NCBI GenBank assembly: GCA_025435555.1
Contig: JAIWWG010000022.1
Span: 62,001 to 126,000, forward strand
Source of the DNA: Chytriomyces cf. hyalinus JEL632
Lineage: Eukaryota; Chytridiomycota; Chytridiomycetes; Chytridiales; Chytriomycetaceae
DNA length: 64,000 nucleotides
Direction: 5' to 3'
A program made the position numbers and the translations under genes. Below the pieces are notes generated by a model. The model searched no databases and was not told where the DNA came from. It was given only the letters and a program-made list of their open reading frames with translations. This document shows positions 23,091 to 47,439 of this stretch, in pieces (position 1 is the first letter of the stretch; every line of letters begins with the position of its first letter).

Positions 23091-26000
23091 CTAAGGATCT
23101 TCGGTGCTTTTGACTACAGGGGGCGGCCGCCGCATGACCGAGTAACGGTTCGTAATTCGGCGATTCAGCAACGCCTTCTGCCTCTCGCGCTCTGCTTCGG
23201 CCAGAATATCATCCTCCTCATAGATGGACTTGGATCGTATCCCAACTTGGTATATGGAACTCCTGTGCTGGACACTGCGGAGAGACTCAACGGTGGACTT
23301 TAAAAATTCGTTCTGCGTCTTGAGGGATGAAATCAAAGAGTCGCGCAACTCGCTCCCTCGAGGCATGGGCGCAAAAGAAACGCGTGCATGTGCAAGGATG
23401 CTTTCGCGCCTTTCCGTCCACTCCGGCTTGAATTTACTTTCAGGCAGTGAGAATCGCGCAACGGTGCATGAGTCCTCCTTTGTATCTGGGATGAATGGAA
23501 AATCGCCAAACGGTGCCAACAATCCATCTTGGATACAGTTGCTGAGCGTATTTGCGAAAAAGTCTCGCTCCTCTTTGTAAATGTCCCGCTCAGCCTTCAG
23601 ATCCACAATTTCCTCCTTCAGGACGCCAATCTCTGAGGAGGCCGCTTCGTATTTGCCCTTCCAGTTGCTGATTTGTGATTCGTATGATCCCACTTTGCTT
23701 TGCAGGGCAACAATCTGGTCCACTTGAACAACGACTGTTTTTGCCAGTGTTGACAGGGTATTCTCAAGCGATACTGAGGTTGCTGAATCACGCATTGGCA
23801 GCGATAGACGCGCATTTCTTGCAGTTTGAATGCGTATTGCGCTTTGAAGCCGGATAATAAGCGACTGCTGTTTGGCAAACGTGGCTTTGGCCCTGTTTGC
23901 GCGCCATAGAGATTGAATAACGATTGCTGATCGAACTTTCTTCTTCTCTGTCCGCCGCTTCCTTGCCAGGAAACTGCGAACAAATGCTTGAATCGTGATC
24001 GTCGCTGCCTTCGTCCGTTCGTAGTTTCGCTGAATAATTGAGCGCTTGAAATTCTTTTGGGTCAGGACAACCAGGTATCGCACCCGATCTTTTCTTCGAT
24101 TTTCGAAAAACGCAATCTGCAGAAAAATATGCTCAGAAAACCACGCAGAACGAAAAAGAAAGTTAATTTGCAAAAACCTGTCCATTTTTAAGAAAAACTT
24201 TTGTTTTCCCAAACTGGTACTTGGATGGATCCGTTAATATGCTTGTCACGATTTTCATGGCCAAGGCCTTGTTATCAAATGTCGTTCGCGACAGAGCATC
24301 GACTAATAGCCCATAACGAGTTGCGAAGATTGCATATTCGAGCTTGTTTGGATATCCGGCGTTGCTGATTTTGATTGTTTCCAAAACACCGCAGGCTGCA
24401 TTATTGTAGAAATCCCATTGGTATTAGAGACAAGGATTCAACAAAGCATTTTTGATGCGTTTAACCTTGCAACTGAGACAAGACCATGGCGCCTTCAAAC
24501 TGGAACGGTTCCTTGGCCATGTTCGGCTTAATGCATCGGATATACTACCGAACGAAAAAGTTTTAATGAAGCAGATAAATGACGCTAAATCATTTCTTAC
24601 ATGACTCTCAGTTTTCCTCATGGTCGCCATCAGATCCTGCAACGAAGCTTTGAAAACTGATCCTAGAGTCGGAGTCTTTGCGGAAGCCCTTCCAGCCACT
24701 TTTCCTGCAGGAACCGCAGCAATTGCTGAAACTTGATCATCGGCCAAAAGCTCGCGCAGAAATGGGTTTGTGGACTTTGCCAGCACTTGTTTCAGCTCAT
24801 CGCTCATACTGTCCTTGTTCTTGTCGATGAAATTGTGGCTTGCATATTGTACTGAAACAGCGTAATGCTTGACAACAAAATCCGTTGTTCCGAATCTTGG
24901 TTTCGCGTAAAACTTTTGGGAGGGTGTCGCAAAATGGGTGTTGAGCTTGGTGACTAGATTTGCATCGGTTCCATTCTGAAGTCGCGATTCTTCGTCCAAC
25001 AGCGCAAGAATGCCCAGTTTTCCCTCAATCAACTCAATACACTGCTTGTTGTCTGTAAACTCAATCATTGTCCATTGAATGCCTTCTTGGATGTATCCCT
25101 CCTGCTCTATCCGGAACACGTGCGCGTTGAACTCTTGTTGAAGCTTCTCGTTTGCGTAATTTATACAGAACTGTTCAAACGAGTTGGTCGCAAAGTGTTC
25201 GAAGCCGTAAATGTCGAGAACGCCGATAAATTGCTGAGAATCCGTGGACTCGCGCATCAGATTTTTGTTAATTGTTTTAACGAGCCAGTCAAAGAGTTTT
25301 GTGTATCTGTTTTGTGAGTTTTGCGTTGAGAAATTCTAAGTGGGCCAATTGCAGAGGGCATTCATACAGAACACTCACATGACTTTTGTCACAGAATCGC
25401 GTGCAGCAACAGCAGCTTCCGATTTGACATTCTTTACAAACTTTTCACCGCGGATGATATTCTGCTTTTTGGTGATCCATTGGATAAACTCAGATGAGTT
25501 GATTCCCAGTAGCTCAGTGCACTTGATCAAGGCCACATCGATCTCAGAGCATGATGCAGCATCACGATTTGGCGCAATTTCAATATTGCCAATGTGAAGT
25601 AAGGCAGCGCATATTCGAAAGATTTCCCTACGTTATCCAAAAAAGAACAGTCAACTTCAGATAGAAATGCGCACGAACTTTCAAAAATACCATTGTAGTG
25701 CGACAGGGACGCCAGCAGTCGATAGCGCTTCCTGAGTAGTCCTGAATTCTTCCACATCGTTCACGTTTCGAATGACTCCCGCGTTTCCTTGCCGCAGATA
25801 GGCGAAATTTTTCCATGCAGTCAATCCAAGCATCTTTTTCTCAGCGAGAGGAGCGGCGGCGCAGAGTTGGTAGAAAATGTGGTAATTGCGCTCTGAGCAA
25901 TAAAAATAACAGTCAGGAATATCGACAAATTGAACCGCGAAAACAGTCAAGTATCGGGAACCTGTATCAGGTTGGTATATAAGCCGCGACCGTTCCAACA

Positions 26001-27238
26001 GATAGGTCTGGACTTTCGCCCCTGTGATGTGAACCTTTCCGGAATACGGATTTGAGAAGAAAAGCTGCACGAATTTCCCGAAGCGCGATGAGTTGTCATT
26101 CCTCGTCGTTTTTGCATTTCCGAAAGACTGCGCGTGTAGCCAGTTTGTCGGTTATCTGCCGACGACAAATGGGGAAGAATGCAGTTACCTCCAGAATTGG
26201 ATTTGAAGCCAGCACCGCTTCTTCCGTTTCGCTTCTTAAATTCGAAGATTCTGATTCTGTCAGCGAGTCTACTGCTGCCAAGTACTGCATGATATAACGA
26301 GTAGACTGTGTTTTGCCCGCGCCAGATTCTCCCGACACGACAACTGATTGGTTTTTTCCTTCAAGCATGGCTCGGTAGCATTCTTCTGCAATCCCATACT
26401 GTAGTTTTCGTGGTTGAATTTTCAGGCTTGTCAAGTCTTTTTTTTTCATTGCAGTGTCTGAAAGACTCACGATATGTGGTGTCATTTCCGCCCGTTTCTT
26501 TCCGCCAAACTTTCTCATGATTTCGTCCGTGTAGATATCGACTCTCTCGAATGGGTTCATGGCTATTAGAACCATCCCGGAGTATGTATAAATTCGCTTG
26601 CTTAAGAAACGGTTTTTGATTCCCCAGAATACGGCTGGTCTGATAGGCATCGTTGTCAGTTGGAACTTAATTCGCTAGCGCATATGACAGATTCTTACTC
26701 GTGTAGATGCGAGAGAAGTGACAGGTCATCAACATGATCCTGTGTTGGTGTGTTCGGATGAGACATAACGAACGCTTGCACACAACACAAACCATGAAAT
26801 CCGGATTTTTGGGAGGAGGAAGATCCGAAGCACTGTTTATTTTCGATAGCGGCAGTTTGAAGTCGATCGCCTGTGTTTTGGTTTGGCGGCGCATCAGTTT
26901 TCAATGTTCTGTCGGCCCTCCAAATTGGCAGCGCCTTTCACCTCGCCGGAATCAACGTCCTTGAACAGAATATGCACTACATTCGAGGATATTGTAGCAT
27001 CTGACGCAGCTTCGGCCATGGACCAGCCATGCGCGGCATGTTTGAAGTACCTGTCAAAGAGTCTAGTCAGTGATGGGGGCAACCTTGCTAGCAGGCCCCG
27101 ATGTCTCACGCTCTCGATCCCTGTCACACCAGATGGCGTCAGTAACAAGACCTACAAGACCAACAAGACCAAGCACAAACAGCACTGCACCTTCTGGTAG
27201 TCCAGCAACCGACGCTGCAGAACGTCCGTTTCGATCAT
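23091..27238 (-). CDS. Class-V-type myosin heavy chain lacking the DIL cargo domain
   Basis: Actin motor of 1103 aa in 14 exons (minus): 27191-27238, 27110-27120 (an 11-nt microexon), 26942-27050, 26793-26870, 26699-26739, 26471-26639, 26189-26398, 25962-26127, 25691-25892, 25379-25627, 24601-25306, 24466-24544, 24178-24395, 23091-24116. Order: SH3-like N-terminus, P-loop GESGAGKT (about residue 175), switch [10 protein letters not shown], switch II DIYGFEHF, KEPFQFEGAMVLSQL and GYPNKLEYAIF in the converter side, then IAFFENRRKDR. Three IQ-like motifs follow (ATITIQAFVRSFLARKRR, AIVIQSLWRANRAK, IIRLQSAIRIQ), then a short coiled coil. It stops after SKSIYEEDDILAEAERERQK plus a basic tail. The two paralogues continue about 300 or more residues further into a DIL domain; this one does not. 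Confidence 0.93.
27110..27120 (-). other. 11-nt microexon of the tail-less myosin
   Basis: Exon 1 ends Leu-Asp-Tyr-Gln-Lys in phase 0, and the SH3-like exon begins in phase 2, so the two cannot be joined directly. The 11 bases GGATCGAGAGC, flanked by TGTGACAG and GTGAGA, fix the phase and add Gly-Ser-Arg plus part of Ala. The same-sized microexon stands at the same place in the myosin at 32 kb. Confidence 0.85.
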
Positions 27239-27351
27239 AAATTGCCTTCAAAAAATTTATTTTGTTTGTCTTTCCAAATTGCTTTGTTTTTATTTTTAGA
27301 TTGTTTTGATGATGCTCAAGTTGCTTTTATTTACGACATGACAATGCTGGT

Positions 27352-29198
27352 TCAAGGTCCGTAGTATGCACGCGCAGGCTGGACGGGGTACACTGGCTGA
27401 GTCGGGTACATTGGTTGAGTCGGATACACGGGTTGGTTCGGATACATGGGTTGAACTGGATACACGGGCTGCTGAAATGGTGCCAACGGTTGAGCATTTT
27501 GTGCATAGTATGGTACATTCTGCTTGTAACCCATTTGAGATGGTGCGCCATTTCGGCGGAGTTGCATGCGCCGGAACAGAAGCGTTCCACCGCAAAGCAA
27601 TAACCCGAATATCAGCAAAAGAGACGACCACACTAGTTGATAGTTTCTGAAATTTCTCATGACACCTCCGAGGACACCCGGCGCGTTGGGATTAAAACTG
27701 ATGCTGGCGTCTGTCGAGCGTCCCTTCCCAAGAGCAAACCCAATTCTTCTTTGATCGTAATCAAACACTGTCACGTATCGCTTCAAGAAAGTGTTTCCAA
27801 TCAGGTAGGTTCCTTGGCGGAACCCTCCATCGGCTCCTTGCAGCATCAGCTGGCATTGGCCATTCACTGGTGCGCTCACATATTCCAGCGCTGTGACGGT
27901 AATTTGGACTCCTCCAGCAAACTCCAGAGTGACGGTAGGACCTCCATTCTCAGCCTTAGAGTTGCAATCCATGATGTATGTAAATGCTCCTCCTCGGCCT
28001 ACCCTCGCGCGACGTGCACCAGGTATTGCTGATCCAATTGCGTCAATTAACGCGTTCGAAACAATAGCTTGACTTGTTCCCGTGTCAATAATGGCAGAGC
28101 CCGTGTTTCCCTCTGGAGCACCGGAACTGGAAGCGTGTGAGGTAAACTTGTCCACAACTTTGGAGTCGCCGTTCTTGCTCACAATCACACGCAGCAGTGG
28201 AAGTGCCAGTTTACCATCTTTGATGGAGTCATCTGAGAGTAAGGAGACAAAAGAAGGGGCTGCAGTTGTGTTTTGGAAGAGGTTTGGGTTCCACCCCCCG
28301 AGGGTTGCTGTGCCACCCGCTTCCATCACGTCAATAAAGTAGCTGAATATGTTGGACTTCAGTGCCTTGGAGGATATAACTTGCTCGATGAAGGAATTGG
28401 TTACACTGCTCGCCAATACTAAGAGGGAAGATGCTTGTTAAGATTTCATACTTTTCCAAACCGTCAGTGAGCCTAACCTTGTGGATGAAGTCCCATTCCA
28501 ACAATTCCGTCCGAATCTGCGTCCGAAGGGTTGAACCGGTTGCTACCGCCTTGAGAAACGTAGCTGGTGACTTGAGTGAACTCGAATGCTTTCAAAGCCG
28601 CCGCGCCAATAGCAACATCATCTGTAACCCTGAACCCCCCATAACCAGATCCATCAGCATACTTCCCGCCCAGCGCCGTTTTGTTGAGATTGGCACCAGA
28701 AGAACTTTTTGTAACATCGTATTTGTTGTTTGCATTTTTGCAAGCCTGTTCATTTTTGTGGGGGGAAAGCTGTATAAGTCACGGCGTTGACTGTTCATGA
28801 AAACGACGACTTACCTCAGATTCGCACGTGGATCCGTAAATCCACATATCAAAAGATCCAGTGTCCAGCAGAAGGTTGTACACCTTTGCAGGGGTTCCGA
28901 CCTGTACCATTGCGCGGTACTCGGTCATGACGTGCTGGTACTCTTGCAGCGTGATGTCCGAGTCATTTGACGCCGTGGCAGCTTTCGAGACAAAGTAGTT
29001 CATGAACCGCGCCGAGAAGGAATTCGCATCCAAGTTGTCCTTGAGCAGTGTGTTGATGGGCGTCATTGAGTTTGGAGTTGTCCCCATAGGAATTTCAAAG
29101 TAGTCCGGCTCTTGTGCCAGTTCTTGGGCATGCTGTGCCAGTGCCGTCTGAAGAAGCGCCGCTAGAGACAAAGGCACCAACGCCCTCAGTTTCAGCAT
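27352..29198 (-). CDS. Pepsin-family (A1) aspartic protease with transmembrane segment and YPxQP-repeat tail
   Basis: Exons 28815-29198, 28478-28745, 27352-28418 (minus) give 572 aa. The ATG at 29198 gives a signal peptide (MLKLRALVPLSLAALLQTALA). A propeptide-like region follows, then the catalytic motifs LLLDTGSFDMW (about residue 113) and AIIDTGTSQAIV. Family landmarks include KYADGSGYGG, DGIVGMGLHPQ, GTYLIGNTFLKRYVTVFDYDQRRIGFAL. After the protease domain there is a transmembrane helix (LVWSSLLLIFGLLLCGGTLLF), a basic stop-transfer LFRRMQLRR, and a cytoplasmic tail built of PVYPxQPMYPxQP repeats. It lies 113 bp from the start of the myosin, on the same strand. Confidence 0.93.
27366..27475 (-). 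repeat. Coding tandem repeat (YPxQP) in the protease tail
   Basis: Six or so copies of a 15-base unit encode PVYPTQP/PMYPTQP/PVYPVQP at the C-terminus of the second aspartic protease. Unit differences are mostly Val/Met and Thr/Val/Asn changes, showing repeat growth by slippage under coding constraint. Confidence 0.85.
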
Positions 29199-29373
29199 TC
29201 TGGGAATCGGTATTGTCAAAATTTAATCCGTCCCCCGTTCAAATGCTTCACACTCTTTGGTGGCAATTTTCATTCATTGACAAGTTCGAAAAAAAAAACC
29301 ATCTCTCGTGATTTCCGCGTAATAATAACAATACGATGGCGTTCATTTATTAGCGCCCTCTTCATTGCCCCAC

Positions 29374-31065
29374 TCACAATCGCTGGTAGTTCTTATCCAC
29401 CACAAAAAACTGTTGGCTCATGTCTCCAAAAATGCTTTCCCTTTCTAAAGGCCGGGCATCATATATATCTATTGCTGAGAGTTGTGATTGCAGACGAGCG
29501 TGGGTTTTCATTTCAGCCAACCTTGATGATCGCTTTACCATGCGGTCGAAATTGGCGTCCAAATCAGGATATACTTGAGCTACGCTTGTGGTAGAATGAT
29601 AACTGCTGCAGATATTGTTTGTCTGCATCATTTGTGCAGAAACGCGCTTGGAAGGCTTGCATTTGATGTACAGGCACAAATAGAGACTTGCCAGCAGCAC
29701 AGCTGACGCAAGAACCACAGCACACAGCACAATGGATTTCGTACTCGTTCCCAGCCCAGCGGCAAACGCGCTCGCAACGCTTGCATCGAATTCAACGCCG
29801 CTTACCATGCGAGACCGGCCTTTCGCAAGCACGAAGCCAATTTGTTGGTTTTGGTAGTCAAACACTGTGACAAAGCGTTTCAAGACCGTGTTTCCAATCA
29901 AGTACGTGCCTGGATTCAAACCACCCAAGCGGCTCCCTTGGAACAGGATTTGGCACGCTCCGTTTTTGGCTGGTCTGCTCACGTACTCGAGCGCGGAGAT
30001 GGACAGTTTGACGCCATTTGCAAATTGAAGGGACACTGGCGGGCCGCCGTTTTCGCGCTTTAAATCGCATGGGACGGTGTAAACGTAGTCGGTCCCTGTT
30101 TGGGTGGTTAGCACTCGTTTTGCATTTGGAAGCTGCTGAGCAAGCGCGTCAAGCAACTTGTACGATACAATGGACTGAGAAGTTCCTGTGTCAATTACGG
30201 CGCTTCCCGTGATTCCCTCTTGCGCCGCATTCGAACTGGCAAGAGATCCGTGGGTTTGAAATTGATCAACAAGGGTAGTTCCCACATACGACTGAATCAG
30301 CGGAAGCGCGAGTTTTCCAGCTGAAAATGATCCATCTTTGAGAATCGGGATCCAGACAGGGACATCTGCCGAGTTTGAGAAAAAAGTCGCATCGTATCCC
30401 CCAAGTGTTGCAGTGCCTGAGCCTTCGGATACGTCAATGAAAAAACTAAAAATCCCAGCTGGAAGCACGCGTGTCATGATTGCTTGCTCCATGAAGGTGG
30501 GGATTGATTTTGAGGAACCAGTTTGAGGGCTGAAGGCCATGCCAATGATACCGTCAACATCGTTGTCGATGGGGTTGAAGCTGCCTCCTTGCGAGATGTA
30601 CCGTGTCACCTGAGTGAACGTGAACGAAGGTACGGATACAGAACCCATCGTTACAGTGTCCTGCACCAGGTTTCCTTGATAGCCTGAACCATCTGCATAG
30701 CTTCCACCAGGTGCTGGCGTTTTTAGGTCCACTCCCGACGTGCTACGAGATACGCTGTACTTGTTCTTTGCGGAAGTGCACGCCGGCGAAGAACAAGCGT
30801 CACCATAAAGCCACATGTCGTGGCTACCAGTGTCAAGAAGCATAGTGAACTGGCGTCCGCCGACTTGTATACTTGCGCGGTATTCCGTCATGACGTTCGG
30901 ATACTCTTGCAGGGGTACGGAGTCTCGAGCTGACAGTGTGGATGCATTGATGTTTTGAACACTGCCCATGCTGTGGATGATGAACGGGATTTGCGGTAGG
31001 GGTGATGCTGTGGTGGGGAATGCTTGTGCAGGAGCGTGAAGGGGTGCAAGAATGAATGCTCGCAT
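29374..31065 (-). CDS. Pepsin-family (A1) aspartic protease, intronless, with transmembrane segment and long cytoplasmic tail
   Basis: Single exon of 563 aa from the ATG at 31065 (MRAFILAPLHAPAQAF, signal-like). The frame stays open upstream to 31140 but begins with GTG, so 31065 is preferred. Catalytic motifs are MLLDTGSHDMW and AVIDTGTSQSIV, with SYADGSGYQGN, DGIIGMAF and GTYLIGNTVLKRFVTVFDY. A transmembrane helix (SIVLCAVVLASAVLLASLYLCLY) is followed by a basic KCKPSKR and a cytoplasmic tail of about 95 residues without repeats. Its two paralogues have one and two introns, so this copy has lost introns or arose by retroposition. It is the rightmost protease and faces the 32-kb myosin head to head. 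Confidence 0.93.
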   Translation of the reverse strand: MRAFILAPLHAPAQAFPTTASPLPQIPFIIHSMGSVQNINASTLSARDSVPLQEYPNVMTEYRASIQVGGRQFTMLLDTGSHDMWLYGDACSSPACTSAKNKYSVSRSTSGVDLKTPAPGGSYADGSGYQGNLVQDTVTMGSVSVPSFTFTQVTRYISQGGSFNPIDNDVDGIIGMAFSPQTGSSKSIPTFMEQAIMTRVLPAGIFSFFIDVSEGSGTATLGGYDATFFSNSADVPVWIPILKDGSFSAGKLALPLIQSYVGTTLVDQFQTHGSLASSNAAQEGITGSAVIDTGTSQSIVSYKLLDALAQQLPNAKRVLTTQTGTDYVYTVPCDLKRENGGPPVSLQFANGVKLSISALEYVSRPAKNGACQILFQGSRLGGLNPGTYLIGNTVLKRFVTVFDYQNQQIGFVLAKGRSRMVSGVEFDASVASAFAAGLGTSTKSIVLCAVVLASAVLLASLYLCLYIKCKPSKRVSAQMMQTNNICSSYHSTTSVAQVYPDLDANFDRMVKRSSRLAEMKTHARLQSQLSAIDIYDARPLERESIFGDMSQQFFVVDKNYQRL

Positions 31066-32094: not shown

Positions 32095-35000
32095 ATGGCG
32101 GCACCACCACCTCCACCAGCAGCACCCCCAACCAAAGGAATCGACCTGTCCAAAGTGTTACTGGACTACAAAAAGGTGAGGACATCTTCGACAGCTCCAG
32201 CTCCTAGCAGCGGAAGATCAGATCCACTTTGAGCCACGCCAAGATGACCCCTAACATAACATTCATTATCCCAGGGTTCCCGTGTGTGAGTGTACAACAA
32301 CGCATTGTCAGCAGTAGCAGCTTTGTAATTGCGTTCGCAGATACTTTACAGATGACGAGGATGGCTGGGCAATGGCCCAGGCGGAAGAGGACCCACAGAC
32401 AGATACCGGGTCCCTCAAGATCAAATACAGAATGGTCGAAACGGGCGAGGTGCGACTGGATTGCTGCATTTGTTGATGATGCATGCTGACGTTTGTTGGT
32501 GCAGATGCGGGATTTCAAGATTGCGTTGTCTGCGCTCAATTCAACGTCGCTTTTACCGCCATTGAAGAATCCCGGCTTTATGGTACGTTCGAAATCCAGC
32601 TTCGCACTTATATGCGAAATGCGTGGCGTCTTGCGATTGACATGTTCTTCCTCTTCAGGACACTGTGGATGACCTTTCTCTGCTTTCGTATCTTCACGAG
32701 TTTCGTATTTGTTCATATTGCTTCAATCTTTCGCATTCTGACATTGAATCACAGACCGGGAGTCTTTTGGGGAATCAAGAACAGATTCGCTGCACAGAAG
32801 ATTTATACCTACTCCGGAATGGTCCTCATTGCCGTGAATCCATTTGAGCGCCTTAACATCTATTCAACTGACATCATGCGAGAGTATGCTGGAAGCAAGC
32901 GAACGGATTTGGAGCCGCATGTCGTGAGTTTTCCATCCTTCTTGCGACAACCAGATTTCATTGTCTAAACGGCGCATTTCAAAGTACGGAATCGCCGAAG
33001 AATGCTACCGAGCAATGCTTGAAGGTCATAATCAATCAGTTATTGTTTCTGGAGAGTCTGGAGCTGGAAAGACGCAGTCAACCCGCTACATCATGCAGTA
33101 CCTTGCCGTTGTCGACTCTCTCAGCAGAATCGATTCAGTCGAAGCACTCATGAGACCCGAATCAATGAATGCCGAGGTGAAGCGGAGTGAGACTGAGGAG
33201 GCTGTGCTTGCTTCGAACCCTATCCTGGAGGTAAAGTAACACCAATTTAAATTCGCCTGGGCATAAAACGCTCACATACGCCTGAAAACAGTCGTTCGGT
33301 AACGCCAAAACAACGCGTAATGACAACTCGTCGCGTTTTGGAAAATTCGTCGAGCTGTTCTTTTCAAATCCAAGCAGCGGGTCTGTGCGAATTACGGGCG
33401 CTAAAGTGCGAACTTATTTACTCGAACGGTCGAGACTGATCTTTCAGCCAAAGACAGGTGTGCAACAGACTTCTTCACTTTCTCATTGTAGCTTTGTGTT
33501 AATTTTGTTTTCAGAGCGAAACTACCACATCTTCTATCAATTGTGCGCTGCTGTTCCTGCTGCGGAGCGGAAACATCTCGGGTTGGATCGATGGGAAACA
33601 TTCCATTATCTAAACCAAGGAAATGCTGGAGTGGTGCGAAATATGAACGATGTGGAAGAGTACAAGCTGACGATGGATGCTCTTTCCACCTTGGGAATGT
33701 CTGTCTCCACTCAATGGTAAAAAAAGCTTGTTTTCAGTCAAATCGTCTACCAAGGACGTCAATCTAAGCAAAGCGGCGCTGGCGCATTTTTAACAGGGAG
33801 ATTTTCGGCATCTGTGCCGCTGTACTGCATATTGGAAACGTCAAGATTTTGACGAATGGGAACGATGGAAGTTCAATTGCCGAAAACGATCCTGCAGTTG
33901 AAAACTGTGCGCGATTGCTGGGCATCAATAAGTCCGACTTCATCAAATGGGTGACCAAGAAGCAGACCACCGTCGGAAAGGAGAAGTATGTCAAGGACCT
34001 GAAATCGGATCTGGCGCTTGTGGCGAGGGACTCGGTAACAAAAGTCATGTGAGAAGGTTTTTTGTATCATTGTTATTTTACCTCGCTGACATATCGAACT
34101 TGTCAGCTACACAAAGCTGTTTGACTGGTTGGTGAAAAACATCAACAAGAGCCTGAAAAGGGACTCCACGAATGATCAGAATTTCATCGGAGTGCTTGAT
34201 ATTTACGGGTATTTGTGTTTTTCCTTGGTTCAATTATCGTGTAACTCACACATCAGCCAGTTTCGAACACTTTGCAGTCAACTCGTTCGAACAATTTTGC
34301 ATCAATTATGCCAACGAAAAACTCCAGCAAGAGTTTAACTCGCACGTGTTTCGGTTGGAGCAAGAAGGATACATCAAAGAAGCAATCGATTGGGAAATGA
34401 TTGAATTCACAGACAACCAAGGCTGCATTGAACTTATCGAAGGACGTATGGGAATTATGGCGCTCCTTGATGAAGACTCGCGCCTTCCTGCGGGAACAGA
34501 TGCCACGTTTGTTGGGAAACTGTTGAAAAACTTTGATGTTCCGACTCAAAAGTTTTTCGCCAAGCCTCGGTTTGGAACGACGGATTTCACCGTGCGACAC
34601 TACGCTGTTGATGTTACTTACACGAGCACTGGTTTCATTGACAAGAACAAGGACAGCATGAGTGATGAACTGAAGGATGTTTTACTTGCTTCCACCAATT
34701 CCTTCTTCAAAGACGTGTTTTTGGGGATTGGGACTGGTGGCGGTGAAGGAGTTGAGAGTCCAAAATCGAATGGAGGGACTATTGATAGAAGGAGATCCAC
34801 GATGGCAAGAGTGCCAACCCTTGGAAGTATGTTCAAAGCTTCGCTGGCGGAGCTGATGGACACAATTAGAGCGACAGAAAGTCATGTAAGTTGCGTGTTA
34901 TGCCATATCGTTTTGTAGAACTGAAACGTCATGACTTTTCGCAGTATATTCGATGCATCAAGCCAAATATGGCTAAGACTTCTTTTGCTTTTGAAGGAGC

Positions 35001-38000
35001 CATGGTCTTGTCACAACTGAAAGGTTTTTAAACCTTTTGAAAATATTTTTGTCTTGGAGTGTTGATCTGACTGAAATTATCTGATCTCAGCGTGCGGAGT
35101 CCTGGAGACCATCAAAATCAGTAACGCTGGTTACCCAAACAAACTGGAATATGACCAGTTCGCTTCTCGATACGAGATTCTTGTGAGCTCATCATTTTGG
35201 GATATGCCTGACAGGAAGGCCTTGTGCATCAAAATTGTTACAACAGTTCTGTCCGACCAATCAAAGTACCAGTTTGGAAAAACAAAAGTTTTCCTGAAGA
35301 GTGGACAGGTGATCTCCACTGTTTTGATGAATCATTCGAAGGGTTCTGATGTTCTTTCTTCTGGTCAGATTGCCTTCTTTGAAAATCGCCGAAAAGACCG
35401 CATAAACTACTTGATTCTTCTTGCCCAGAAAAACATGAAGAAATTCCTCCAACGCACACGCTACCTGCGCATCAAAGAAGCCGCTGTTGTTTTGCAATCT
35501 GCCGCTCGTGGCCACCTTGCCTACAAACACTACGTTGAAATGCGTGAAGAAAAGGCGGCCGTTAAATTGCAAACGGCCATTCGTGGATACCTCTGCCGCA
35601 AGCATTACCAGGCGCAAGTACGCAGCCGATCAGCTGCTCTTACCATTCAACGCTGCTGGCGCGGCCATGTTGCGCGAAAAGCGTGCACCATTGCGAGGGA
35701 CCGCGTTGTTTTGATTCAGAGCTGCGTCCGTAAATCACAGGCACGGAAAGCGTTTAAGACATTGAGGCTGCAAGCCAAAGACTTGAACAAAGTCAAAGAA
35801 AAGACGTTTGGATTGGAGTCAAAAGTGGTGTCCTTATCAAAAGCATTGCAAGAAAAGAGTACCGAAAGCAAGGACTGGAGCGAAAAGTGTGCCACGTTTG
35901 AATCCATGGCTCACTCGCTGAAAGAAAAGTTGGAAGCGTCTGAAGCGAAATTTAAGGCTTCGGCGACCGAATTGTTTACGCTGAGGAAGCAGGTGCAGGA
36001 TCTACAGCATGAGCGCGATGTGTTAAGAGCCGAGAAGGAGCGATACGCATTCGTTGTCGATCAAGCCGCTTCGGAGGGACTAATTTCTCCTATCGAAAAC
36101 ATTCCCATCATCTTGAAGCCTGATGGAACATCTTCTCGGGGAGTTAGTATGTCTCGCAATGGGAACTTGTCCACAGGAGCTCGCTTTACGCATAGTCCAT
36201 CCGGAAGTCGTGAACCGTCCGCGAATCGCGAAATGAAGCGCCCAATTCAGAGACTGAACAGTATTGCCGTTGGAGGAGCGGATAGTGGCAATGCTTGGCC
36301 ACGAGGTGGAAATTTGCTGACACCCGAGGTTTCCAGGGGTCGCACTGTGTCGGAGCTTTTCCCTCAAATGCGCAGTTCCGTTTCACCATCGGGCATTGCA
36401 AGCGGCTCCTCTGGAACGGGTGCGCCGAATATGCCGCTTCCCGGAAAACCAGGGCCTATGGGCAGACTTGGCAGTATTAGTGCCAATCCTAACGGCGAAG
36501 ATTCCATAATCGCATCACTCCGAGCTGAGAATGAGAACCTCAAGAAAATCATTGCGTCTAAAGGAGGTGCCGGAGGTCCTCTAGGTCCTGCAGGTCCTGG
36601 AACGGGCCCACGTGCGGTTCCAGTTCCTGTTCGCAGGACAACGATGCGGTCACAATCCATTTTTGCCGGGGATATCTTGGGCGACGCTGAGCGCGAGAGA
36701 CAAAAGGAGTTGCACAAACCTGCACCAACGCCGGTTCCAACGAGCAGTGATTTGAAAAAGTTCTTGTTGACGACACCGTTGGGCGGGAACATGCTGTCTG
36801 CATCACCCGGAGCGATTCCGTCGCTGATGGCCTCTCCTTCCGCTCTGGCGTCTGACATGCGAACATCGCCCACACCAATGCCAGCAATCTTGAGAGCTGC
36901 TCCACCGTCGCCAATGAAAAACATTGCGCCGGGCATGCTCCTGCCTCCATCCACGCTTGCACCACTTGTTGCTGAACCTGAGGAAGACTACCCATCACGC
37001 AGTTCCACGCCAACCTTCCTGCCAAGACGGTCCAGTATCAAACAAAACGTGAAGCTTCAACAAGACCGAGCTGAATTGTTTGCGAGCGAAGAATTCAACG
37101 ATGTCATCTGTGATGAGCTGATATTGAATCTTCAAGTACCCCCTATTACGAGCAGAAGAGACGCTTCACCGCGGTCGCAACAGGAAGTCTTTTACCCTGC
37201 TCATTTGCTTGGATCTATTATTTCCATGCAACTTGAGGTGGGTATGTTGGTGGAATTGCATGGGTTTGTCAATGATATCATGAATGCAGTGTGCAAAGTC
37301 GTAATTGTGAGTGTTTTCTGGACCTTGATGGCCCATAGCAATTTTTGAACAACATATTTTCAGGATAATCGCGATAAGTCAAGCATGACTTTCTGGATTT
37401 CGAACATTCACCAGTTATTATGCATCACTGCTCTGATTCACTCACAAGAAGTCAAAAAGCCCAACAACCGCGGTAACCTGAACGGAATCCGAAACATCCA
37501 AAACGATCTTCATGATCTTCTCGAAAACGAGCTCGTGCCCATCCTTTTGAAGCGACTAAGAGAAGAAGTTGCATCGTTAGCCGCCCCTGCAATTCTGCAG
37601 ACCCAAGAACTGCCCGGTTTCGAAACCTCGCACGACGGGACCTTCTGGGACATGTTTGGACGTGTCATGGAACGGAAACCGGAGGGGCCCAGTGACTTGT
37701 ATAAACTTAAGCTGCTCCTTACCACAATTGACAACACACTTTGTGCATTCTATGTGCCGGACGCTTTGTATTCAAAAACTATGATGGAGATGATGCGGAC
37801 TATTGGAGTTGTTAGTTTCAATGGACTACTGCGGCGGAGGAACCTCGCAAACTTTAAGCGAGGTTGTCAGATTCAGTACAACTTGAAGCAGATGGAAGAG
37901 TGGTGTGCGAAAGTTGGTCTTTCTTCAGGTGAGTTGTCCAAAAAAAGTTTCTTGTCATGTTCAGCAAAAAATGCTAACGGTCGACAGCATTAGCGCATCT

Positions 38001-38409
38001 TGAAATGGTTGCGCAGGCTGCGAAAATTTTGACGCTGAACAAGATGGAGGCGGAGGATGTCACTGCGGTCTTTGAGATCGGTTATTTGCTCAATGCGAAC
38101 CAAATCAACCAGTTATTCTCAAATTATTCAATCACTGATCCTGATATGCCTGTAAGTTTGCTCTTCTCTCGGGTTTTCCGTCTGCCGATCTCGCGCATTC
38201 GCTGATCCACGTTTTTGCAGATGTCAATTGAGTTTCAATCTCTCATTCGCGATCGGGCAGCTGTCACAAACCATCGCGATGTTGTCAGTATTTCTCTGGA
38301 CCCAGAACCGCAATACCCCCTCATGACAATCACGTCGGTTCATCACATCGATAAATCTGTGCCAGCATCTGTTCGGATTCCACCCGACTATCAGCGGATT
38401 CTTGCGTGA
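32095..38409 (+). CDS. Class-V-type myosin heavy chain with DIL cargo-binding domain
   Basis: Actin-based cargo motor, 1744 aa in 18 exons: 32095-32175, 32275-32285 (microexon), 32341-32449, 32505-32582, 32659-32699, 32755-32923, 32985-33230, 33292-33457, 33515-33716, 33797-34048, 34107-34208, 34261-34885, 34945-35023, 35091-35308, 35369-37306, 37364-37928, 37988-38151, 38221-38409. Order: Pro-rich start (MAAPPPPPAAPP), SH3-like domain, P-loop GESGAGKT (about 186), switch [10 protein letters not shown], switch II DIYGFEHF, converter, four clear IQ motifs (AAVVLQSAARGHLAY, AAVKLQTAIRGYLCR, AALTIQRCWRGHVAR, VVLIQSCVRKSQAR), coiled coil, a Ser/Pro/Gly-rich hinge, the conserved GDILGDAERERQKE motif, and DIL from about residue 1363 (MTFWISNIHQLLCI). 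The intron 35309-35368 is 60 nt and stop-free in frame, so its retention would add 20 residues. Confidence 0.95.
32275..32285 (+). other. 11-nt microexon of the 32-kb myosin
   Basis: GGTTCCCGTGT, between CCCAG and GTGAGT, is the only short exon that joins LLDYKK (phase 0) to YFTDDEDGW (phase 2). It yields KKGSRVYFTDDEDGW, the expected SH3-like beta strand of class V myosins. Confidence 0.87.
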
Positions 38410-38766: not shown

Positions 38767-41700
38767 ATGATGTCCGCTGGTCCGCCGGCACCGCCCCCGT
38801 CGCAGACTCCTGGAGGAAACAGTGAGCAGCTTGCAAAGGCGCTTCTTGATTACAAGAAGGGCTACTACGGGTGTGTCTCTGACGATTGAACGATTGAAAT
38901 GCTAATTCAGACTCGATGAACAGTTACTTTGAGGACAAGACCGATGGATGGATTATGGGCGTTGTGACGGCAGATGCAGCTATCTCTGAGGGGTCGCTTT
39001 CTGTCTCGTTCAGGATCGAAGGAGGCGAGGTTGGACCGATTCATGTTGTCTCCCGTAGTCTAATTCCCATGCGATCGCCGCTCCAGACTCGCGAGATTAA
39101 GGTCCCTGTGTCTGCGTTGGAAACTCTGCCGCCTCTCAAGAATCCGGATAACATGGTAACGTGCTTGGCATGAGATGCGTCCAAATAATTGTCTCTCTCA
39201 ACACTGATGCTGTTATTTTAGGATTACGTGGACGACCTTTCACAACTGTCATACCTTCATGAGTTAGCTATTCTCTCTCTCTTTGCGTCCTGTGTTGAAT
39301 CTGACGCTTTTTTGTTTCAAGACCTGCCGTCTTCTCCGCAATCAAAAACAGATTCCTGCACAAGATTGACCCCAAAATATACACCTACTCAGGAATGGCC
39401 TTGATTGCCATGAATCCATTCGCAAAGGTGGATATTTACTCTGAAGAGATCATGAAAGAATATGCAGGCGTCAGCAGGGAAGCGATGCAGCCGCACATCG
39501 TGAGTGCTTAAGTCAAACTCTTTTTACAATCCCGGACTAAGTGTTGATTCATTGCAGTATGGAATTGCCGAAGAATGTTACAGAGCTATGCTGACTGGCA
39601 AGGATCAGTCCGTGATTGTTTCGGGCGAGTCGGGTGCAGGGAAAACGCAGTCGACGAAATACATCATGCAGTATTTGGCAGTGGTTGATTCGCTGTCCAA
39701 GGCGCGATCAGAAGCGAAAATATTGAAAAGTGAGACGGAAGACGCTGTTCTTGCTTCCAACCCAATTCTTGAGGTTTGAAAGATATCCTCTTAAACATGC
39801 GTTCATCTCAATTGATTCTGTTTTAATTTGTCCGCAGTCATTCGGAAACGCAAAAACGACACGAAATGACAACTCGTCCCGATTCGGAAAGTTTGTGGAG
39901 CTTTTCTTTTCAGACCGCGACTCTCATTCTGTGCGCATTACTGGCGCAAAAATCCGAACATATCTGCTGGAGAGATCTCGTTTAATTTTCCAGCCAGAAT
40001 CAGGTCAGCATCACGTTCCCTCAGTAATTCGTCTAATTTCTTTGTTTTTCGATAAAGAGCGAAACTACCACATCTTTTACCAATTGTGCGCTGCTGCACC
40101 AGCCGCTGAAAAGAAAAGGCTCTCCCTTGACCGTTGGGAGTCATTTCATTAGTGAGTACTGGATGCTCTTCTTAAGCAAAGACAAGGCCAAGTGGCACTC
40201 AATCTTGCTGATGTACCTTGCACTGTCACTTAGTTTAAACCAAGGAAGGGCTGGAGTCGTCAAAACAATCAACGATATTCATGATTTCAAGGATACTCAA
40301 GATGCCCTCTCAACCGTTGGAATTCCAGTCGAATCCCAATGGTGAGAGAGCTCTGTTTTCATGGCATTACAACCTGGCCTGATACGTTCCACCAATATCA
40401 GGGATATCTTTAAGATATGCGCTGCTCTGTTGCATTTAGGAAATGTTAAAGTGAAACCCGCCGAAAAAGATGGATCGCTGGATAAATCAGAGTCTTCTAT
40501 CGCAAACGACGATTCAGCATTGGAAACTTTTACGACATTGCTCGGAATTACGAAGGCCGACTTCGTACAGTGTGTCACAAAGAAACAGACCACTATTCGA
40601 AATGATACCATGGTAACAAGTCTTTCGGTTGACCTGGCAAACGTGACCAGAGACTCCGTTACAAAAGCCATGTAAGTGGCGTCCTTTTGCATGCCACAAG
40701 CCGCTTGTTGAAATGACCGTTTCCGTCTTGTAGCTACACAAAACTGTTTGACTGGCTCGTCCGTATCATCAATCGTGATCTGAAACGCGAGTCTGTCCAC
40801 GGACAGAACTTTATTGGTGTGCTCGATATATACGGGTTTGTATTCGCAAATTCTGTCAGCCATACCAGTTTATATACTCACAACGAAAAATGAAGGTTTG
40901 AACATTTTGCCGTAAACTCGTTTGAGCAGTTTTGCATCAACTATGCGAACGAAAAGCTCCAGCAAGAATTTACGAAACATGTTTTTCGACTCGAGCAAGA
41001 AGAATATATCCGCGAAGGTCTCGAAAACTGGACCATGATCCAATTCAGCGACAACCAGCCATGTATCGATTTGATTGAAGGCAAGGTCGGCATCTTGTCC
41101 ATCCTGGACGATAAATCCAAAGTCCAAAATACCAAGGATGAAGAGTTCATTGACAGCATGAACAAAACTCTGGCGAATCCCACTCAAAAATACTACATCA
41201 AGGCGAAATTTGGAAACGATACGTTCACAGTCAAACATTATGCCGTCAACGTGACTTACACTGCAGCTGGTTTCATTGATAAAAACAAGGACAGTGTCAG
41301 CGACGAGATGAAGGATGTCTTGAGGGCAAGCACCAACTCATTCTTCAAGGAAATATTCTCACCTGATCAGTCTGCGACTGAGGAACCAGCGTATGCATCT
41401 TCAGACAAAACTCGAATGCGAAGATCGACGTTGAAGTCCAAAAGCACCTTGGGATCAATGTTCAAAAGCTCTTTGGAGGAGCTTATGGAAACGATTCGTG
41501 CCACTGAAGGACATGTTTGTGCTCGTTTATTTTGGCGCGGTTATTTCTTAGCTCACAATGTTATTTTTCTTGCCTCAGTATATTCGATGCATTAAACCCA
41601 ACATGGCCAAGACGGCGTTTGGTTTTGAGGGTCCTGCTGTGTTGGCGCAGTTAAAAGGTACACGAACTCCCCATGGATCTTCAGCTAAACTAACTTTGTC

Positions 41701-44376
41701 GTCTTCAGCGTGTGGTGTGCTGGAAACCATCAAAATCAGCAACGAAGGCTTCCCAAGCAAACTCACTTATGAAGAGTTTGCCGAAGGATATTACACTTTG
41801 ATAAACTCAGACTTTTGGGAGAGCAAAGATAAGCGCGATGTGTGCAAGCGGATTATTTCGCCGCTCATTGACTCGTCAAAGTATCGATTTGGTAAAACCA
41901 AAATCTTCTTCAAAAGTGGACAGGTTTGGGACATGCATGCGACTTGCTTTCTTTATTCCTTGAAATGTAAATAATTGGTTGTAGATTGCATTCTTTGACG
42001 CTAGGCGGCGCGAAAGGGTCATCTTCCTGATGAACTACGGCCAGAAGAATATCCGGCGCTTCCTTCAACGAACAAAGTACAAGGAAACTCTCCTAGCCAT
42101 CAGCGACATGCAGATGCATGCGCAGAGGTACATTGCTGAAAAGAAGCTCGCGAAACTGCGTCATGAAGCTGCCCTCCGCAAAGCCGAAGAAGAACGGAAA
42201 AGGCTGCTTGCCGAGCAAGAAGCCGCTCGCAAAAACGAATCCATCGTTCTTCTTCAGAGTTGTGTCCGTCGCCGAATCGCTTTCAGTGTCCGTCAAAAGC
42301 TCAAGCAAGAAGCCAAAAATGCGGAAAAGAATGCGGAACGATTCAAAGAAAAGGCGTCCAGCCTTGAAAATAAGGTTGTCTCACTTGCCGCAGAATCCGC
42401 AGCAAAGCAGACGGAAATTCAGGATTTGGCAACGAGAAATGTGTCTCTTTCCAACGATCTCGACACCGCGAAGTCTGCACTTAAGGCTGCCCAAGAGCGC
42501 ATTCAAATGCTGGAGTCGGAACTTGAGTCGGTGAAACGAGACACTCATGATCTGCATGCATCATCCGGCTATTTGAACGGGCGAATGTCTGTGTCCACCG
42601 AGTCTGGTGTTTACATGGCAAAATCTCCAAGCCGTGCAGGTCGTCATGGTCTCTCAAGGGCACCTTCGCTGAAAAGATCGAACAGCATTGTTTCAAAAGA
42701 ACATCAATCAGAACTCAAGGCTCTTCGAGCCGAAAATGATGCATTGAAGATGATGTTGGATGGAAATCGCGCGTCTACTGTGACAGCTGGTTCAAGTGGA
42801 ATGAAACGGGGGCCAACAATGACCCGTGGAAAGTCCATCTATTCTGGGGATATTATGGAACTTGCTGAGAGAGAAAGGCAAAAGAATGGAAACTCTGCGT
42901 CTTCCACGCAAGAGACAATTCAGCAGCGAACTACCAGCATTCCCGAGAATGCCAAGGCGCTTGTAAGACTCTTGCCCATTTCGTTGCAAATACCAAAACT
43001 AACAGCCATCAAATACACTCTCTGCGGTAAATCAGTCTCATCGAATCGAAGTACTCGGCCGTGAAATGTTCATCAATGATATCTGCGACGCTTTGATCAC
43101 CAAAGTGCAAATTCCTATGCGCATTGGTAACGACCCATTGTATAAACGAGATGTCCATTTCCCGTCGCACATTTTGGGATGTTTGTTCGCTGTCGAGATG
43201 GATCTTGGAATGGTTATTGAGTTATATGATTTCTGTGAAGGCGTCGTGGAGGGTAAGTTCCCCCATTTCGTTCACGATGCGGGTGACTATTTCTGACTGG
43301 CAGTTTCTTTATTCAGCCTTTCAGGAAAAAGCCAAAGTGGTAAGAACGTCATCGACGGCTGACGTTAAATTCTGTATTAATCGAACTTTTTAACCGTGAT
43401 ACCAGGATGGAAACAATCGTGCTATCATGTGTTTTCTGATTTCCAACGCTTGTGAGTTGCTCGGCATCGTGAGTGGCCTTCAAGAATCCGAGTCCAAAAA
43501 GCCAAATAATCGGGCAAATATGAACATTTTGTCAAAAATCCGAGCATCTGTCTACGGTTTATTGGACATTGACCTGCTATCAGCATTTTTGGCAAATGCC
43601 ATTAAAGAAGTGATTCCTCTTTCGGCGCCGGCGCTACTCGAAACTCAAGATTTGGCCGAATTTTACATTCCAGCTGCGCCGAAAACGACCTGGTTTGGAG
43701 CTGCGGAAGAATTCGCCAATGACGGTCTTGCCAAATTGAACATGTTCCTTGTGGATGTTGGAGTGACGCTTCGGAGCTACATGGTCGAAAACTCACTGTA
43801 CCAGCTCATTATGATGGAGATTCTTCGAACAGTCGGAATGACAAGTTTCAACGACCTTTTGCAACGCAAAAACTTCCTTTGCCCGAATCGTGCGATCCAA
43901 ATCGAAAATAATGTTAACACGGTGATAAGCTGGTATACCGCTGTTGGACTGGACGCGGCGCCATCGCTGACAATTCTGAAGGAGGCTTCGAAAATTGCAG
44001 TGCTTCAGAAAACCAGCGCCTCGGATATTCAGGCAGTTTACAGCGTAGTGAATCAGTTGAATGCTAACCAGGTTCAGCAATTGCTGACTGTTTGCTATAA
44101 CTCAAGTCCAGCACCTGACAATGTCGATATTCCGGTACGTGGGGACAAAAAGAAACTGTCTCCAGATGACGTGAGCTAAAATACCACTTTTAGATTTCGC
44201 TTGAATTCCGTGAGGTGGTTCGAAGTCATGCAACGGCATCAAAAACAGCCGATATTTTGGCGATTGGTCTGACGAAGCAGGACCAGCCGTTGACAGTTGG
44301 AAATGTCCACAGTCTTGACAAGTTTGTGCCGCCTTCTGTCATTCTACCGGAAGAGTATGTTCAGTTGCTCCAGTGA
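38767..44376 (+). CDS. Class-V-type myosin heavy chain with DIL domain and reduced IQ array
   Basis: 1527 aa in 18 exons: 38767-38870, 38924-39155, 39222-39262, 39322-39499, 39558-39773, 39838-40003, 40058-40151, 40234-40341, 40402-40671, 40734-40835, 40896-41514, 41579-41657, 41709-41923, 41985-42962, 43006-43252, 43317-43339, 43406-44134, 44194-44376. P-loop GESGAGKT about residue 208; switch [18 protein letters not shown]; lever segment [14 protein letters not shown]. The IQ array is degenerate: after [13 protein letters not shown] comes a charged helix ([20 protein letters not shown]) and one IQ-like [15 protein letters not shown]. Then a coiled coil, the conserved [19 protein letters not shown] motif, and a DIL domain from about residue 1154. 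The microexon intron seen in the paralogues is absent here (fused exon), and an extra intron splits FHY/LNQG at 40152-40233. Confidence 0.94.
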
Positions 44377-44689: not shown

Positions 44690-47439
44690 TCACACTAACA
44701 GTAATTTCAAATCCTCTGGCAAACTGAGAGATGCTGGAATCCGTAATTCCCATTGGTCGACTGGCTCCACCGTGATTTCAGCCTCGATTGGGTCATCCTC
44801 CTCGTTCATCTCTTTCGAATCAGGTCCCAAATTCTGATCAACAGCTCGATGTTTCATTTCAACGAGGAAAGCGGGAGACATCTTTTTGGAAAAATGAATA
44901 AAATAATGAGTCAAGAAACCTCGCGTGAAGAAATGAAACAAATCCCTTACCGCCAGACTTTCCTCTGCATCCCAGCTACAACAATGATCCAGCAAATAAA
45001 GCATGTCTTTGATGCCAACCTTTTTTGTACAATTCAACAGCAAGTCCAAATCCTCTGGCACAGTTTTCTTTTGCATCAGCACAGCCTCAACAACTTGCTT
45101 CAACAAAGCTACCATACTTCCAGCTTGGTTCATACCCACAGCAATATACCAGCCCACGATGGTATCCAAATTCGCGTTCACTTTCCTTGCAACTGTGGGT
45201 GTCAAGAATCCTCGTTTCAGTTCCATCAACGAGTTGAATCCACTCAACCCAACGCTGCGCAACATGTTCAAAAGAACGCGTTCTCGAAACTCTTTCGGAA
45301 CATGGCAGTTTTTCAGCACTCGCCCCACGTCGCTCATCATACTGTTCAACTGAAGCAGACCATTCGAGGTCGCACCACCACTGGCACCTCCCAACCCGAA
45401 AATCGCCGTCATTGTAAACCGATACCCTCCTTTCGAACCGGGAAATTCCACACCATGTAAAACAGACGCATGCGCAATCTCTGACATGTCGTGATCCAAA
45501 TCTTCAAACAAATTTGGAAGCAGGTGGTCTTCGAGGCATACATACATGCGATCCATTATACGAGCGAGAATAGCAAGTTGTGAAGTGCGAACGTCGTGTT
45601 TGAGGGTTTGTTGTTGGCGTCTGCGGAGGGATTCAAGGATGCAAATGAGTTGGTGGATGTTGGAGATCCAAAAGATGAGGCTGGGTAGGTTTTTACGGGT
45701 TGGCGCGGTTTGCATTGCTTTTTTTTTTTTTTTTTGTTGAAAATTGGGATTGTCAAGTGGTTGCTAGTTTGTCTTTTCAGGGCGTTAGTTACCGTTGATT
45801 GCAAACAGCGAAAATTCGTTGAGTTCAACGAGAAGGTCGTTTGCCAGCATGTACGCGCACACAGTGCCGATCGCGTGCGATGGGAACAGAATCTCACGTT
45901 GTTCAATTGCATCCCCAGTCACATCCGGAATAACAAAGTTGGATACAACCAAGCTGCAGAATCTTTCTTTAAAGTCCGGGGCCCTGGCAATATCTATTCG
46001 TCTCATTTCCTACGGGGAAAAAAAAAAGTGCATTTTTAGTAAGTTTTGACAAAAAGAGTGGGTTTCCAAACCAAGGTCACGAATAGAGGCTGCATGCTCG
46101 TTGTCCGAACCGGAGCATCAAACTTTACAGGCTTTCGTGCCATTGATATTTTTCGCGCTAATCCGGCGTTTGAAAGGGTATTTGAATCTTCCGCGTTGCT
46201 TTTAGCCATTGCACGGTGCGATTTGGATTTGGCCATTTTCACAAGCAACGCTTCTTGGTCAAAGGAAAGTGGATGTGTCGAGCGAGTTGGTGAGTCTTTC
46301 GGGGTTGGCACTCCAGGATTGAATAAAGGTATCGAGGCTTTCATGGTGGAGAGTTCCGTTTCGAGGGTTGTTATTTTCAGCTGGTTCTCCTTTAGCCGAC
46401 GCTCGTATTCTTCCTTGATTGGGATGATACGATCCTTGTTTGGTGATTCCGTCTGCTTTGCAAGTTCCGCTTTCAAGGCGCGTAGATTGTTTTGAAGACG
46501 CGCAATTAATGAATCGCGTTCGTTTAAAGTCTTGTAATGATCGGATTTGACTTTAGCTTCGGCTTTCAAAATTGCAAGCTTCAATTGGGAATCAGGTGAC
46601 GAGATGGATTGAGAGCTGCTTTGGTTCTGAAGCTGAATAATAGTATTGTTGAGTTGTTGGATTTGCAAGTCCTGTTGAGACTTGAGATGCTGAATGATGG
46701 AATCGTTGTCTCTTTGGCTCAAGTCAAGCTGCTTGGCAGCCATTCGATCTTGTTCCCTGAGGCGGGTACAGTCGTGTAACTGTTTACTCAGATCCTGTAT
46801 CTGCGATTCCTTCAAAGCCAGAGCAATTTCCCTCGCCTCCAGTTTAGCCGTGACGGTTTTAACTTCCATTGCAGCAGCGTTCAAACTTCTTGTCGCTGCA
46901 TCACAGGCCGCTGTTTTCACGCGGACATGGCCTTCGAGGATGCTGCATCGCTCATTGGCAAGCGCAAATCGCGTGTCGAGATCCTCGAGAGCAGCCTTCA
47001 ACTCGCTATTTGCTGCATTGAACACGGGTAATTGATATAATAGGGATTGTAGATGAAGAAGTTCGTTTGTTGTTCGACCGAGCATGTCTCGCGTGGCAGC
47101 GTGCGCGAACTGGGACTGCGGGGTTTTGGGTTTTATGAATGTGATCATCCCCCTTCGTTTCAAGAAATAGCATGATTTTTGCACGTTTACCTTCTCAAGC
47201 TCGTTTTCAAGAGTTTCGATCGTCAGTTGCTGGTTCTTGAGGATGGCTTCCTTTGCACTCAGATCCTCCTGCAATTGCTTCGCTCTGCCCAGCCCAAACA
47301 GACCCACACTACTGTTGCTGCTGCTGCTGCTGCTCTCTTCCCTCCCGCCCTTCTGCATGCTATGTCGAGAGCCCGAGAATGCGGTGGCCTTCATAAAAAG
47401 AAGTGTTGTTTTTTTTTTTTTTGGACGTGTGTTGTCCAT
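44690..47439 (-). CDS. Motorless myosin-V tail-like protein: coiled coil plus DIL domain
   Basis: Exons (minus) 47191-47439, 46081-47115, 45793-46009, 44951-45717, 44690-44881 give 819 aa. The ATG at 47439 starts a basic N-terminus (MDNTRPKKKK), a poly-Ser run, then a long coiled coil (about residues 60-350). The last about 380 residues are a DIL domain: FKERFCSLVVSNFVIPD, ILFPSHAIGTVCAYML, SLIFWISNIHQLICILESL, LLNMLRSVGLSGFNSLM and KVNANLDTIVGWYIAVGM, each aligning to the tails of the two full-length myosins. The splice between the first two DIL exons is also at the paralogous place (about ING/AMQ). There is no P-loop, switch or IQ sequence anywhere upstream. Introns 47116-47190 and 44882-44950 are multiples of three and stop-free, so retention would keep the frame. 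Confidence 0.88.

What the first reader, a model, noticed from the sequence alone, without database searches (positions are those of the whole stretch)
23091..47439. Head/tail separation in a class-V myosin cluster: a motor without DIL and a DIL protein without motor, beside two intact paralogues
Three myosins share motor, neck and a fungal tail motif, but the one at 23-27 kb stops just where the others enter their DIL cargo domain. The gene at 44.7-47.4 kb is the reverse, with coiled coil and DIL but no motor. The DIL splice position is shared with the full-length copies. This fits gene fission or complementary loss after local duplication. The two halves could pair through their coiled coils to form a two-chain myosin, or the free tail could compete for cargo. 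I know of no described fungal case with both halves in one cluster, but I could not search.
Basis: partly seen in the sequence, partly recalled or inferred. Interest (0 to 1): 0.88.

Follow-up and report, generated by a model that had tools for sequence, protein, structure and literature searches.

The report
Short-tailed and headless chytrid myosins
An aquatic chytrid fungus has, in one gene cluster, a transport motor that lost its cargo-binding end and a separate cargo-binding protein that has no motor, but family trees suggest they arose independently rather than by one gene splitting in two, much as plants are known to have done with their equivalent motors.

Summary
The anatomy is real. 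The window lies in the genome of Chytriomyces cf. hyalinus JEL632: gene D equals its NCBI protein letter for letter. Myosin A (23091-27238, minus, 14 exons, 1103 aa) has an intact motor, IQ neck and coiled coil and ends with no DIL domain. Gene D (44690-47439, minus) is coiled coil plus a globular tail domain (GTD), with no motor. No leftover DIL was found near A and no leftover motor near D.

The fission story is not supported. A sits in a clade of 8 sequences from six genera (99/95); 8 of 8 lack DIL and share a tail of their own. D was found only in the C. hyalinus complex (word-limited searches). It has relatives at a locus with no myosin head hit, and its GTD groups with neighbour C's tail rather than with A's nearer relative B (some measures disagree). 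D's coil is not recognisably related to A's.

So: an old short-tailed class V myosin and a younger headless DIL protein, both from one family. Plants have both types in class XI (PMC3850447). Most likely A is a motor free of GTD control and D a free tail competing for cargo or inhibiting motors in trans. Function is untested.

The parts
23091..27238 (-). Gene A: short-tailed (DIL-less) class V myosin, 14 exons, 1103 aa
   Evidence: orthologue P0009 of the same length
24105..26819 (-). A: motor domain (residues 74-766)
   Evidence: Pfam Myosin_head on orthologue P0009 E 2.9e-240
23796..24104 (-). A: neck with IQ motifs
23517..23774 (-). A: coiled coil; LK[AT]ERD in 8 of 8 clade members and 0 of 113 other listed myosins
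23121..23237 (-). A: C-terminal stretch with the shared AERER motif and clade-specific NRYS (7 of 8 clade members, 0 of 113 other listed myosins)
32372..38409 (+). Gene B: full-length class V paralogue with DIL (14 predicted exons; start and some introns provisional)
   Evidence: orthologue P0016, 96.6% identical
37091..38406 (+). B: GTD/DIL region
38767..44376 (+). Gene C: full-length class V paralogue with DIL (16 predicted exons; some introns provisional)
   Evidence: orthologues P0032, P0039
43066..44373 (+). C: GTD/DIL region, nearest to the D family's GTD in the tree
44690..47439 (-). Gene D: headless protein, coiled coil plus GTD/DIL, no motor or IQ; tail-to-tail with C, 313 bp apart
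44693..45976 (-). D: GTD homologous to yeast Myo2 GTD
47116..47190 (-). D: possible extra intron (in frame, GT..AG) spliced out in three of four orthologue annotations

Best explanation
Two independent products of one class V family. (1) A is the Chytriomyces member of an old Chytridiales subfamily of short-tailed class V myosins: motor, IQ neck, coiled coil and a conserved C-terminal stretch, with the GTD lost before the genera split (shown by tree and domain content). It most likely works as a homodimer without GTD autoinhibition or GTD-bound adaptors, attaching through its own tail stretch (inferred). (2) D is a younger headless protein whose GTD comes from the Chytridiales-type tails, most likely the C lineage, placed behind a coil of separate or unrecognisable origin (inferred from tree, introns and profile comparison). 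D most likely acts as a free tail: it binds adaptors or cargo of the B/C-type motors, or their heads in trans, and so competes with or dampens them (inferred; about 45% for this function, which is untested).
For: A clade 99/95, 8 of 8 without DIL, tail motifs present in 8 of 8 and 7 of 8 and in 0 of 113 other listed myosins. A's rod is homologous to B's and C's (98.9% and 97.4%). No DIL remnant near A, no motor remnant near D. D family of three genes, two in tandem on C1 where no myosin head was hit. D family inside the Chytridiales GTD clade (100/100) and sister to C (100/98); AU test against D with all B p 0.016, with Chytriomyces B p 0.009, outside B+C p 0.009. D's GTD introns match a subset of C's and not of B's. 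Six residues shared only with C against three shared only with B types. D is 89-93% identical between strains. Precedents: free GTD inhibits a GTD-less motor in vitro, Ki 0.5 uM (PMC8873201, passages); overexpressed GTD is dominant negative in plants (PMC4591342, passages).
Against: D lies on a long branch. By plain identity it is equally far from the best B and C types (24.4 and 24.0%), and profile comparison favours B (7.9e-33 against 3.7e-25). With the C rows left out, D goes to the B side. AU groups were chosen after seeing the tree. A's grouping with B types against C is only 92/91, with B types unresolved. Absence of D elsewhere rests on word-limited searches that did not return even C1b, which was in the query. 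The first shared intron (columns 102-104) lies in a poorly aligned linker. No expression or interaction data.
Confidence: 0.75

Rival explanations
1. Gene fission: an ancestral full-length myosin split into A and D, whose products still pair as a two-chain myosin.
For: Same cluster, and apparently the same contig in another C. hyalinus genome, judging by equal contig length (95093 for P0009 and P0005). Complementary domains. Both conserved.
Against: A's DIL loss spans six genera while D was found only in one species complex. D's GTD groups with C, not B (but). Rods not detectably homologous. D's nearest kin are at a locus with no myosin head hit.
Confidence: 0.07
2. D derives from the widespread fungal ankyrin-DIL proteins rather than from a myosin tail.
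For: Motorless DIL proteins with ankyrin repeats exist in fungi (PMC3850447 passages); three predicted genes that look like this occur in this genome (C25, C26, C183).
Against: D has no ankyrin repeats. The D search of the own genome hit B/C-type and ordinary class V tails but none of C25, C26, C183 at E<=0.01. Introns shared with C and ordinary class V tails. The ankyrin-DIL proteins were not put in the tree.
Confidence: 0.07
3. Annotation or assembly artefact: A and D are broken full-length genes.
For: Single assembly; no RNA available.
Against: Same structure in annotations of 4 other C. hyalinus genomes for D (P0002-P0005) and in 7 other sequences for A. No remnants in the window. Intact frames.
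Confidence: 0.02
4. D and A are relics drifting to loss, with no function.
For: Headless plant copies include a likely pseudogene (PMC3850447 section 9).
Against: A's tail motifs are conserved across genera; D is 89-93% identical between strains over about 800 aa with open frames, and its family has been duplicated.
Confidence: 0.09

Closest known systems
Plant short-tailed class XI myosins, subtype 11D (PMC3850447, section 10 read)
   Same: Motor, IQ and coiled coil kept, DIL lost, a clade-conserved C-terminal stretch, long-tailed relatives retained elsewhere
   Different: Plant class XI, not fungal class V; independent origin by lineage (inferred); tail sequences not compared here
Plant headless class XI myosins, AtMyo11E2 and Poales Myo11E4 (PMC3850447, section 9 read)
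   Same: Coiled coil plus DIL without motor; AtMyo11E2 lies in tandem beside its parent; introns shared with the parent tail; no phenotype seen for AtMyo11E2
   Different: The plant copies keep coil exons of the parent (and Myo11E4 three IQ motifs); D's coil is not recognisable as a class V rod and its GTD has diverged to about 24% identity
Fungal class V myosins (yeast Myo2)
   Same: A's motor and neck; D's GTD by sequence
   Different: Neither A nor D is a complete class V heavy chain
Fungal ankyrin-DIL proteins, afadin/Canoe, RADIL, RASIP1 (PMC3850447 and PMC11006394 passages)
   Same: DIL domain without a myosin motor
   Different: No Pfam partner domain found in D; its GTD is of myosin origin by tree and introns

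Membership tests
Class V myosin (gene A) | motor domain branching with class V motors | tested here: met
   (all rows are class V-like hits; class assignment of the outgroup by their names and DIL tails)
Class V myosin (gene A) | IQ neck and coiled coil | tested here: met
Class V myosin (gene A) | C-terminal DIL/GTD | tested here: not met
   for A; for six clade members. A is class V by descent of the motor, not by full architecture
DIL/GTD domain (gene D) | homology to a solved myosin V GTD over most of its length | tested here: met
   profile match to class V GTDs 99.05%
DIL/GTD domain (gene D) | Pfam DIL above the curated cut-off | tested here: not met
   18.5 against 24 bits
DIL/GTD domain (gene D) | GTD fold | not tested
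Headless myosin (as in plant class XI) | coil plus DIL, no motor, tail derived from a myosin family of the same genome | tested here: met
Headless myosin (as in plant class XI) | coil homologous to the parent's coil | tested here: not met
Short-tailed myosin (as plant 11D) | DIL lost, own conserved C-terminus across species | tested here: met
Ankyrin-DIL protein | ankyrin repeats N-terminal to DIL | tested here: not met
Split (two-chain) myosin V from gene fission | both halves from one gene, same age and distribution | tested here: not met
   with the search and long-branch limits stated
Split (two-chain) myosin V from gene fission | physical association of the two chains | not testable with these tools
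   needs biochemistry or complex prediction

The most novel reading that the evidence does not exclude
The chytrid cluster naturally separates motor and regulator: A (beside the full-length B and C) is a motor, and D evolved as a diffusible GTD that switches off or redirects these motors in trans, a dedicated headless inhibitor or adaptor of class V myosin encoded next to its targets.
Probability: 0.15. Interest if true: 0.72.

Novelty: new variant of a known kind. Interest (0 to 1): 0.42.

Why it matters
It suggests that a fungal class V lineage dropped and freed its cargo domain in parallel with plant class XI, which makes the GTD's two roles (cargo binding and autoinhibition) testable with natural GTD-less motors and natural free tails. 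A second, even shorter motor type appears to sit in the same contigs in Obelidium and Siphonaria. Surveys that rely on the Pfam DIL cut-off miss D.

Tried and rejected
Fission and pairing: not supported, as above. Ankyrin-DIL origin for D: disfavoured (not put in the tree). Shared splice positions as proof of local origin: rejected, because C's GTD intron positions also occur in the ordinary class V gene C217 and mostly in C165, hence ancestral. D as a simple head-clipped C: not supported for the coil. Pfam alone: fails for D. My heptad score is a home-made heuristic, used only for location.

Literature: 10 searches. I saw no described short-tailed or headless fungal class V myosin in their listings; most subscription papers are not held. 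Read as passages: PMC2375034, PMC3942036, PMC8873201, PMC4591342, PMC11006394; PMC3850447 as passages plus sections 9 and 10.

Structure: the job for A had not finished in 17 polls, so no structural result is used.

Other DIL-less models: further proteins in the list bear a myosin head without DIL outside the A clade (for example P0026, P0067, P0084, P0090, P0106, P0110, P0111); several are partial or short annotations, and I followed only P0026 and P0111.
Full report
What is there. The window is contig C134:62001-126000 of a 37.8 Mb genome. Gene D's predicted protein is identical, letter for letter over 847 aa, to BJ741DRAFT_648580 of Chytriomyces cf. hyalinus JEL632, a chytrid of the order Chytridiales. 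The cluster reads: A (23091-27238, minus), B (about 32372-38409, plus), C (about 38767-44376, plus), D (44690-47439, minus). A lies among pepsin-like aspartic protease genes.

Gene A. Splicing by a home-made coding-potential predictor, corrected against its orthologue, gives 14 exons and 1103 aa. Motor loops are intact. The last exon ends in TAG at 23091, about 400 bp before the next reading frame on the same strand. tblastn of 41 tail domains against the window gives strong places only at B, C and D; eight weak places (E 0.058-0.64) lie elsewhere, none between 21 and 23 kb. Eight motor queries hit only A, B and C. So A lacks a GTD in the DNA, not only in annotation.

A is old. In a motor tree of 38 rows A sits in a clade of 8 (bootstrap 99, SH-aLRT 95): JEL632, C. 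hyalinus, Chytriomyces MP71, Entophlyctis, Siphonaria, Obelidium, Rhizoclosmatium and Podochytrium, which is six genera (the 52-row quick tree gives the same 8, SH-aLRT 96). None of the 8 has DIL: six were scanned, Podochytrium is by the precomputed Pfam column, A itself. For the other genera this rests on annotated proteins; I had no DNA. They share a rod with LK[AT]ERD (8 of 8) and a C-terminus with NRYS (7 of 8, not Entophlyctis); among the other 113 proteins of the list neither motif occurs (0 of 113 each). The Podochytrium model carries aspartic protease domains, which suggests the same neighbour gene as here. The nearest full-length relatives are B types (92/91), unresolved among themselves; C types lie outside.

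Gene D. It has no Pfam match at E<=0.01. Its GTD matches yeast Myo2 (E 1.1e-6), and the family profile does so over nearly the whole domain (E 5.8e-11). Orthologues of 791-835 aa occur in four other C. hyalinus genomes, and a second family (about 61-62% identical in the tail) in at least three genomes. In this genome that second gene lies on C1, followed in tandem by a third, shorter headless gene, C1b. No myosin head was hit on C1. A profile search, limited to 8000 candidates by shared words, returned 8 proteins, all from this species complex.

Where D's tail comes from. In a GTD tree of 41 rows the D family falls inside the Chytridiales B/C tails (100/100) and next to C (100/98). Holding D with all B types, as expected if D were A's lost tail, costs 21 log units (p-AU 0.016); with Chytriomyces B, p 0.009; outside B+C, p 0.009. 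The groups were named after seeing the tree and the branches are long. Without C1b, D stays with C; without the C rows, it goes to the B side. D's GTD introns (columns about 103, 178, 484) match a subset of C's (103, 178, 187, 484); B has 187, 417, 484 and lacks 103 and 178 (the first lies in a poorly aligned linker, columns 102-104). These positions also occur in the ordinary class V gene C217, so the shared splice positions are ancestral. Against this, plain identity does not separate the best B type from the best C type (24.4 and 24.0%), and hhalign scores B higher (7.9e-33 against 3.7e-25). Shared-only residues are 6 with C and 3 with B types.

Coils. A's rod is homologous to B's (98.9%) and C's (97.4%). 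D's rod matches none of A, B, C or ordinary class V (0.5-2.4%). Pairing of A and D through related coils therefore has no sequence support; it is not excluded physically.

Synteny. Equal contig lengths place A, C and D orthologues together in one C. hyalinus assembly (95093: P0009, P0032, P0005), B, C and D in another (55904: P0016, P0039, P0002), and A, B and a further short motor in Obelidium (224957: P0019, P0017, P0111). This is inference from lengths, not from maps. C223 carries a B and a C paralogue (78% and 70% identical), with neither A nor D in the stretches I fetched and no second copy of either in the genome searches.

How it probably works. Class V heads are held off by their own GTD (PMC8873201, passages). 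A, having none, should be free of this (inferred). In plant MYA2 a free GTD inhibits a GTD-less construct with Ki 0.5 uM, and overexpressed GTD slows organelle traffic (PMC4591342, passages). D resembles such a protein made naturally. I favour D as a free tail acting on B/C-type cargo or heads; whether it acts on A is open.

Known kinds. Plants have short-tailed class XI (11D) with a conserved C-terminus of their own, and headless class XI proteins, one in tandem with its parent (PMC3850447 sections 9 and 10). The chytrid case is the fungal class V counterpart, with both types in one cluster and an unrelated-looking coil on the headless one. I found no fungal description in 10 searches of an incomplete library.

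Noticed in passing
P0111 (Obelidium, contig length 224957) and P0026 (Siphonaria, contig length 18006): A second short motor type of 704-882 aa, B-related (pair 100/100), ending soon after the neck with similar C-termini and no coil or DIL; apparently in the same contigs as A, by equal contig length.
   Followed up: partly
L015 (C1:948000-955500): Two headless DIL genes in tandem on C1; the second (C1b, about 477 aa) was not returned by the protein searches and may be unannotated.
   Followed up: partly
L014, L016, L017 (C25, C26, C183): Predicted DIL proteins that look like the ankyrin-DIL type of fungi (ankyrin repeats judged by eye, the type is described in PMC3850447 passages).
   Followed up: no
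window 21118-22368, 27352-28437, 29374-31146 (-): Pepsin-like aspartic protease genes around myosin A; similar reading frames precede the C223 copy (by eye), and a Podochytrium A model carries such a domain.
   Followed up: partly
C178/C217 and C26/C183: Near-identical gene copies on different contigs (96% for C178/C217 with prediction differences; C26/C183 by eye), suggesting two haplotypes or recent duplication in the assembly.
   Followed up: no
window 27110-27120 (-): An 11-nt microexon in myosin A restores the reading seen in P0009.
   Followed up: yes
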